Source: Actinomycetota bacterium (lineage in GTDB: Bacteria > Actinomycetota > Actinomycetes > Mycobacteriales > Mycobacteriaceae). Taken from it: DNA of 6,708 nucleotides. Below the pieces are notes generated by a model. The model was not told where the DNA came from and ran no database searches. It worked only from the letters and a program-made list of their open reading frames with translations. The stretch lies in assembly GCA_005787665.1 (NCBI GenBank), contig SYAB01000048.1:1-6708 (forward strand). The letters run 5' to 3'. A program made the translations under genes and the position numbers. Positions 1 through 483 of the stretch are shown piece after piece; position 1 is the stretch's first letter, and every line of letters starts with the position of its first letter.

Positions 1-483
1 GGCGCCAACATCCTGGGCCGAATCATGGGCGCCTCGGTCACCTCCGACGGGTACCACATGGTGGCACCGGATCCCAACGGCGAGCAGGCAAGCCAGGCGA
101 TCACCCGGGCGGTGCAACTGGCCGGTCTGCAGCCCTCCGACATCGACCACATCAAGGCGCACGCCACCGGAACCCAGGTCGGCGACGTCGCCTAGGGTAA
201 GGCCATCAACGCCGCGATGGGCGGGCACTACCCGGCGGTCTACGCGCCGAAGTCGGCTCTCGGTCACTCGGTCGGCGCGGTCGGCGCGGTGGAGTCCATC
301 CTCACCGTGATGGCCCTGCGGGACGGGGTCATCCCGCCCACGTTGAACCTTCGCCACCTCGATCCGGAGATCGACTTGGACGTGGTGGCCGGAGAACCCC
401 GGCAGGGGGATTACCGCTACGCGGTGAACAACTCATTTGGGTTCGGTGGCCACAACGTGGCCATCGCCTTCGGGAAGTACTGA
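1..483 (+). pseudogene. kasB: 3' part of beta-ketoacyl-ACP synthase KasB, interrupted by an in-frame TAG
   Basis: KasB is the FAS-II condensing enzyme that joins malonyl-AcpM to a growing meromycolate chain and is needed for full-length mycolic acids. The window opens in frame 1 inside the gene. The catalytic His loop AHATGT is at 157-174 (His codon 160-162), PKSALGH with the active-site Lys (250-252) and second His (265-267) is at 247-267, and the terminal NNSFGFGGHNVA motif is followed by the TGA at 481-483. KasB rather than KasA is chosen because of the HATGTQVGD loop, GANI and VAPDPNGE motifs, and the position directly upstream of accD6. TAG at 193-195 replaces the Glu codon of the family motif GD(V/L)AEG(K/R)AIN. 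About 96 residues, including the catalytic Lys and second His, would be lost. The frame is otherwise open on both sides with normal codon use, so the lesion is recent or a sequencing error. The catalytic Cys lies upstream of the window. Confidence 0.88.
193..195 (+). other. in-frame amber codon in kasB (Glu to stop)
   Basis: The reading GDVA-stop-GKAIN keeps frame on both sides, and a single G-to-T change (GAG to TAG) explains it. The change also creates a CCTAGG hexamer at 191-196. No frameshift is involved. The next in-frame ATG is at 217, but an 88-residue restart product would carry only the C-terminal active-site half and could not work alone. Confidence 0.9.

What the first reader, a model, noticed from the sequence alone, without database searches (positions are those of the whole stretch)
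193..195. Amber stop codon inside kasB, between the two catalytic histidines
The frame is open from base 1 through 481 except for one TAG replacing the conserved Glu of the GD(V/L)AEG(K/R)AIN motif. It removes about 96 residues including the active-site Lys and second His, so the product should be inactive. Family knowledge makes this biologically plausible: kasB, unlike kasA, can be lost in M. tuberculosis, giving shorter mycolates and loss of acid-fast staining. If real, this organism is a natural kasB mutant. The absence of other frame damage and the single-base nature equally fit a recent mutation or an assembly error.
Basis: partly seen in the sequence, partly recalled or inferred. Interest (0 to 1): 0.72.

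Follow-up and report, generated by a model that had tools for sequence, protein, structure and literature searches.

The report
Stop codon in one kasB copy
The stop codon really is in this DNA sequence, but an otherwise nearly identical, unbroken version of the gene is on record from what looks like the same mycobacterium, so this is probably a sequencing or assembly error near the end of a DNA fragment, or at most a rare broken copy.

Summary
In detail: bases 1-483 are the 3' end of kasB, directly upstream of accD6, and TAG at 193-195 interrupts an otherwise open frame. The stop lies after the first catalytic His and before the conserved Lys and second His (motif placing recalled). The reading "this organism is a natural kasB mutant" is not supported at species level. 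P0159, a full-length 417-aa KasB recorded on 5 contigs (longest 59,461 bases), matches the window at 63 of 64 residues before the stop and 95 of 95 after it. The best match to the window's GlpD, P0241, differs at 1 of 519 residues and has the same longest contig length. The window departs from P0159 at two codons only: the stop and codon 52 (bases 154-156). Both columns are invariant in 56 syntenic relatives and in the 120 full-length homologues listed, and both lie in the first 195 bases. The part after the stop still looks selected. Most likely this is error at a contig edge (about 0.62); a rare, recent broken allele in one strain is the main rival (about 0.33). No read data were available.

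The parts
1..192 (+). kasB, piece before the stop (64 codons, 5' end of the gene lies outside the window)
   Evidence: NF005916 positions 259-322, 111.6 bits; Pfam Ketoacyl-synt_C; solved KasB-type chain 2gp6 residues 275-338
154..156 (+). second odd codon (codon 52 of the fragment), at a column invariant in relatives
193..195 (+). in-frame TAG (codon 65 of the fragment)
   Evidence: sense residue in 65 of 65 syntenic kasB copies
196..483 (+). kasB, piece after the stop (95 codons and the usual TGA)
   Evidence: NF005916 positions 324-418, 182.8 bits; equal to P0159 at 95 of 95 residues
491..496 (+). GAGGAG, possible ribosome-binding sequence of accD6
   Evidence: read from the sequence; inference
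505..1935 (+). accD6-like carboxyltransferase, the gene that follows kasB in relatives
   Evidence: frame, Pfam Carboxyl_trans, synteny; the gene name is recalled
1932..3491 (-). glpD1-like glycerol-3-phosphate dehydrogenase, used as species marker
   Evidence: best match P0241 differs at 1 of 519 residues

Best explanation
The TAG is most likely an error of sequencing or assembly near the 5' edge of a metagenome contig, lying in an ordinary kasB gene that is intact in the same species. Shown: what looks like the same species has a full-length KasB equal to the window at every residue except fragment codons 52 and 65; both odd codons sit in the first 195 bases; the other genes of the window show no comparable damage. 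Inferred: that the window is a whole contig with thin coverage at this end and that few reads decided these bases. If so, the organism makes normal KasB, the beta-ketoacyl-ACP synthase of FAS-II that adds the last carbons of meromycolic acids.
For: P0159 (417 aa, 5 contigs, longest 59,461 bases) equals the window at 63 of 64 and 95 of 95 residues, against 60 of 64 and 90 of 95 for the next best of the 240 proteins compared. P0241 ties the window's GlpD to a longest contig of the same length, with 1 of 519 residues different; the next hit is 86% identical. The two departures fall on invariant columns and in the first 195 bases; the other 962 invariant columns tested in kasB and five further genes hold one departure, and P0241 shares that one. 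Fisher 0.004 with the stop, 0.07 without it. After the stop dN/dS is 0.03-0.13 in the 14 comparisons printed, against 0.02-0.17 in 66 pairs of relatives. No fragment listed is identical to the piece after the stop (best 93%, 120 of 543 hits listed).
Against: No reads, depth or contig record were seen, so the contig edge is inferred. Two changes at invariant positions of one gene also fit a real gene without constraint. The stop was what drew attention, so the 0.004 is biased; without it the clustering is weak. GlpD differs from P0241 at residue 118, so real strain variation exists.
Confidence: 0.62

Rival explanations
1. A real but rare and recent kasB null allele in one strain of this environmental mycobacterium: a nonsense mutation plus one further missense change in the same gene. 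KasB is dispensable in laboratory mutants, so such cells would live, with altered mycolates and a more permeable wall.
For: Two changes at invariant columns lie in one gene. kasB deletion mutants of M. tuberculosis and M. neoaurum exist (PMC4014462, passages; PMC7106593, abstract). GlpD shows some strain variation. A frame-broken kasB is seen in another genome, G048.
Against: Both changes are near the 5' end of the window, the intact sequence is on 5 contigs, and no second record with this stop was found in the lists seen.
Confidence: 0.33
2. The whole species is a natural kasB mutant.
For: The stop is in the sequence.
Against: P0159 is intact and otherwise the same at all residues but codon 52; the part after the stop is under selection like that of relatives.
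Confidence: 0.02
3. The species has two kasB copies and the window shows a decaying second copy next to accD6, while P0159 is the working one.
For: Seven draft genomes of the genus carry two kasB 5' pieces that end at the same residue on two contigs, so kasB duplication seems to occur.
Against: In the 65 loci that reach kasB and accD6 a kasA-type copy lies before a single kasB-type copy. The piece after the stop equals P0159 at 95 of 95 residues, which would need a very recent duplication.
Confidence: 0.03

Closest known systems
KasB, 3-oxoacyl-ACP synthase 2 of mycobacterial FAS-II (NCBIfam NF005916; solved chain 2gp6, which is M. tuberculosis KasB by recall)
   Same: Both pieces align end to end with consecutive parts of 2gp6, in the kasA-kasB-accD6 order of relatives
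   Different: Stop at one position and an odd codon 52; the 5' part of the gene is outside the window
Laboratory kasB deletion mutants (M. tuberculosis, M. neoaurum)
   Same: If the stop were real, the same loss of KasB activity would be expected
   Different: Those are made deletions with measured effects (PMC4014462, passages; PMC7106593, abstract); here there is one odd sequence, no phenotype, and an intact copy on record
Frame-broken kasB of genome G048 (L094, L121)
   Same: kasB between kasA and accD6 with a broken reading frame
   Different: Frame shifts, not a stop by substitution; a different species; whether real or error is not settled

Membership tests
KasB (KasA/KasB family beta-ketoacyl-ACP synthase) | Match to the family model over the part present | tested here: met
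   NF005916 best for both pieces, 111.6 and 182.8 bits; the pieces alone cannot reach the whole-protein cut-off of 560
KasB (KasA/KasB family beta-ketoacyl-ACP synthase) | kasB-type, not kasA-type, directly upstream of accD6 | tested here: met
   89% and 94% to the L001 copy next to accD6, 56% and 78% to its kasA
KasB (KasA/KasB family beta-ketoacyl-ACP synthase) | Unbroken frame through both His and the Lys of the active site | tested here: not met
   TAG at 193-195; active-site placing recalled
KasB (KasA/KasB family beta-ketoacyl-ACP synthase) | Catalytic Cys | not testable with these tools
   It lies in the 5' part of the gene, outside the window
Fixed natural pseudogene of the species | Lesion shared by other records of the species | tested here: not met
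   P0159 on 5 contigs is intact
Fixed natural pseudogene of the species | Relaxed selection after the stop | tested here: not met
   dN/dS 0.03-0.13, within the range of relatives
Fixed natural pseudogene of the species | Further damage besides the first lesion | tested here: inconclusive
   One further odd codon, 52, at an invariant column; decay or error
Sequence error at a contig edge | Thin or conflicting read support at the site | not testable with these tools
   No reads or depth at hand

The most novel reading that the evidence does not exclude
A naturally occurring kasB-null strain lives at low frequency inside an environmental Mycolicibacterium population next to intact cells: a spontaneous loss of KasB outside the laboratory, with shorter mycolates and a leakier wall.
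Probability: 0.3. Interest if true: 0.35.

Novelty: not a real feature. Interest (0 to 1): 0.12.

Why it matters
If the stop were real and fixed it would give a natural case of KasB loss. As it stands it is mainly a warning: one odd codon near what is probably a contig edge should be held against other records of the same species before a phenotype is drawn from it.

Tried and rejected
Recoding or suppression of TAG: rejected. Relatives use an ordinary sense codon there, what looks like the same species has an intact copy, and no tRNA gene is in the window. Suppressor tRNAs elsewhere could not be looked for without a genome.

Chimera with kasA: tested, rejected. The longest exact stretch shared by the window's first 483 bases and a relative's kasA is 14-26 bases in nine relatives, and the kasA copies also carry a sense residue at the stop position.

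A generally poor sequence: rejected. accD6, TetR, the FAD-linked oxidase and the lipid kinase show no departure at 315, 79, 210 and 107 invariant columns (66, 30, 80 and 68 relatives); GlpD shows 1 at 202 columns (72 relatives; 4 more were dropped because the matched stretch held a stop). That one departure is shared by P0241. Identity to near relatives is slightly low at 181-240 (mean 47.6 of 60, against 50.7 between relatives); weak.

Rescue by restart at the ATG of 217: rejected as a way to activity. The 88-aa product lacks the catalytic Cys and the first His (active site recalled).

The plasmid search gave 6 records with partial matches only. In the listings of four literature searches I saw no report of a natural kasB nonsense mutation or absence; of the papers listed I looked into four, by passages or abstract, and the two hold only expression data or references on kasB. 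Two searches on assembly errors at contig ends were seen as listings only, and no paper of them is used.

Full report
What is there. Bases 1-483 are the last 160 codons of a kasB gene, interrupted by TAG at 193-195. The pieces before and after the stop match positions 259-322 and 324-418 of the 418-position KasA/KasB model and residues 275-338 and 340-434 of the solved chain 2gp6, so exactly one residue position is replaced by the stop. An accD6-like gene follows at 505-1935, then glpD1-like, TetR, FAD-linked oxidase and lipid kinase genes, all with full frames. The same neighbours are found in mycobacterial relatives.

Which organism. No whole genome is held. The best relatives in the genome collection are Mycolicibacterium and Mycobacterium metagenome-assembled genomes at about 83% protein identity for the FAD-linked oxidase and 85% DNA identity over kasB-accD6 (one search covered 396 genomes). 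The window is therefore from a mycobacterium without a close relative in these two collections; that it is environmental is inferred from those relatives. That it is a whole metagenome contig, with an edge 192 bases before the stop, is my inference from its odd length and its ends inside genes.

Conservation at the site. 65 of the 80 loci reach both kasB and accD6; all 65 carry the same sense residue at the stop position, as do the 65 kasA neighbours. Of 396 genomes of the genus, 392 have a match to a relative's KasB at E <= 1e-150; the 150 best matches printed show no stop inside, and the rest of the matches were not printed. In 56 kasB copies of equal length (9 of the 65 dropped for a length difference) 87 of 160 columns are invariant. 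The window departs at two of them, codon 52 and the stop; in leave-one-out tests 45 of the 56 relatives have no departure, 9 have one and 2 have two.

The decisive comparison. A search with a relative's intact KasB returned P0159, 417 aa, one sequence on 5 contigs, the longest 59,461 bases (8000 candidates scored, 120 listed). Compared piece by piece it equals the window at 63 of 64 and 95 of 95 residues; the next best of the 240 proteins compared reach 60 of 64 and 90 of 95. The differences are at codon 52 and at the stop only. The 120 full-length KasB listed all carry the conserved residue at both places, and 33 of the 120 fragments reach the stop position and carry it too; 87 do not reach it or do not align from the first residue. 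So P0159 and the window very probably come from one species, in which an intact kasB exists. Two cautions: that P0159 and P0241 lie on the same contig is inferred from the equal lengths, and P0159's source field is blank, which the tool explains only for proteins the window itself encodes, so I do not know its sources.

Error or rare allele. Against long loss: the part after the stop has dN/dS of 0.03-0.13 in the 14 comparisons printed, inside the 0.02-0.17 seen in 66 pairs of relatives. For error: both odd codons lie in the first 195 bases, which hold 38 invariant columns. The rest of kasB (49) plus five other genes (913) has 962 invariant columns with one departure, which P0241 shares. Fisher's test gives 0.004 with the stop counted, but the stop was the reason for looking; without it the value is 0.07. 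For a real allele: two changes at invariant positions in one gene fit a gene that has lost its constraint; kasB can be deleted in M. tuberculosis and M. neoaurum (PMC4014462, passages; PMC7106593, abstract); and GlpD shows some strain variation. I put error at about 0.62 and a rare recent allele at about 0.33; these odds are judgement.

Consequence if real. The product would end before the conserved Lys and the second His and should be inactive. accD6 starts at 505 with GAGGAG just upstream (491-496), so it need not be silenced. By analogy with kasB deletion in M. tuberculosis, shorter mycolates and loss of acid-fastness (PMC4014462, passages) could be expected; nothing here tests that.

Context on kasB in the genus. 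kasB is not always intact or in place. In G048, on a contig of 6,346,450 bases, the kasB frame is broken by shifts. In G053 and G091 the gene directly before accD6 is kasA-like, about 80% against 67-68%, with no kasB between. In seven draft genomes (G132, G234, G270, G291, G328, G359, G395) two kasB 5' pieces end at the same residue on two contigs, which points to a duplicated kasB with a shared part that breaks assemblies. Whether any of these is assembly error was not settled.

Noticed in passing
L094 and L121 (genome G048, kasB between kasA and accD6): kasB has a broken reading frame on a contig of 6.35 Mb: N-terminal part in one frame, C-terminal part in another. It may be a natural lesion or a long-read error.
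   Followed up: partly
L101, L102, L113 (genomes G053 and G091, upstream of accD6): The gene next to accD6 is kasA-like and no kasB lies between; a further KAS elsewhere (L104-L112, nine genomes) is about equally distant from kasA and kasB, 67-69%.
   Followed up: partly
L114 to L120 (genomes G359, G234, G395, G132, G291, G270, G328): Two kasB 5' pieces per genome end at the same residue on two contigs, in 7 of 7: probably a duplicated kasB with an identical stretch that breaks short-read assemblies.
   Followed up: partly
L019, L028, L035, L037 (glpD-like match): The matched stretch of the glpD-like gene holds one stop in these four relatives; an effect of the alignment's ends or a real lesion.
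   Followed up: no
6666-6708: A further open frame begins with ATG at 6666 and runs off the window; its start looks like a nitronate monooxygenase-type protein by recall only.
   Followed up: no
window 1935-3491, GlpD residue 118: The only difference of 519 between the window's GlpD and P0241: strain variation or another error.
   Followed up: no
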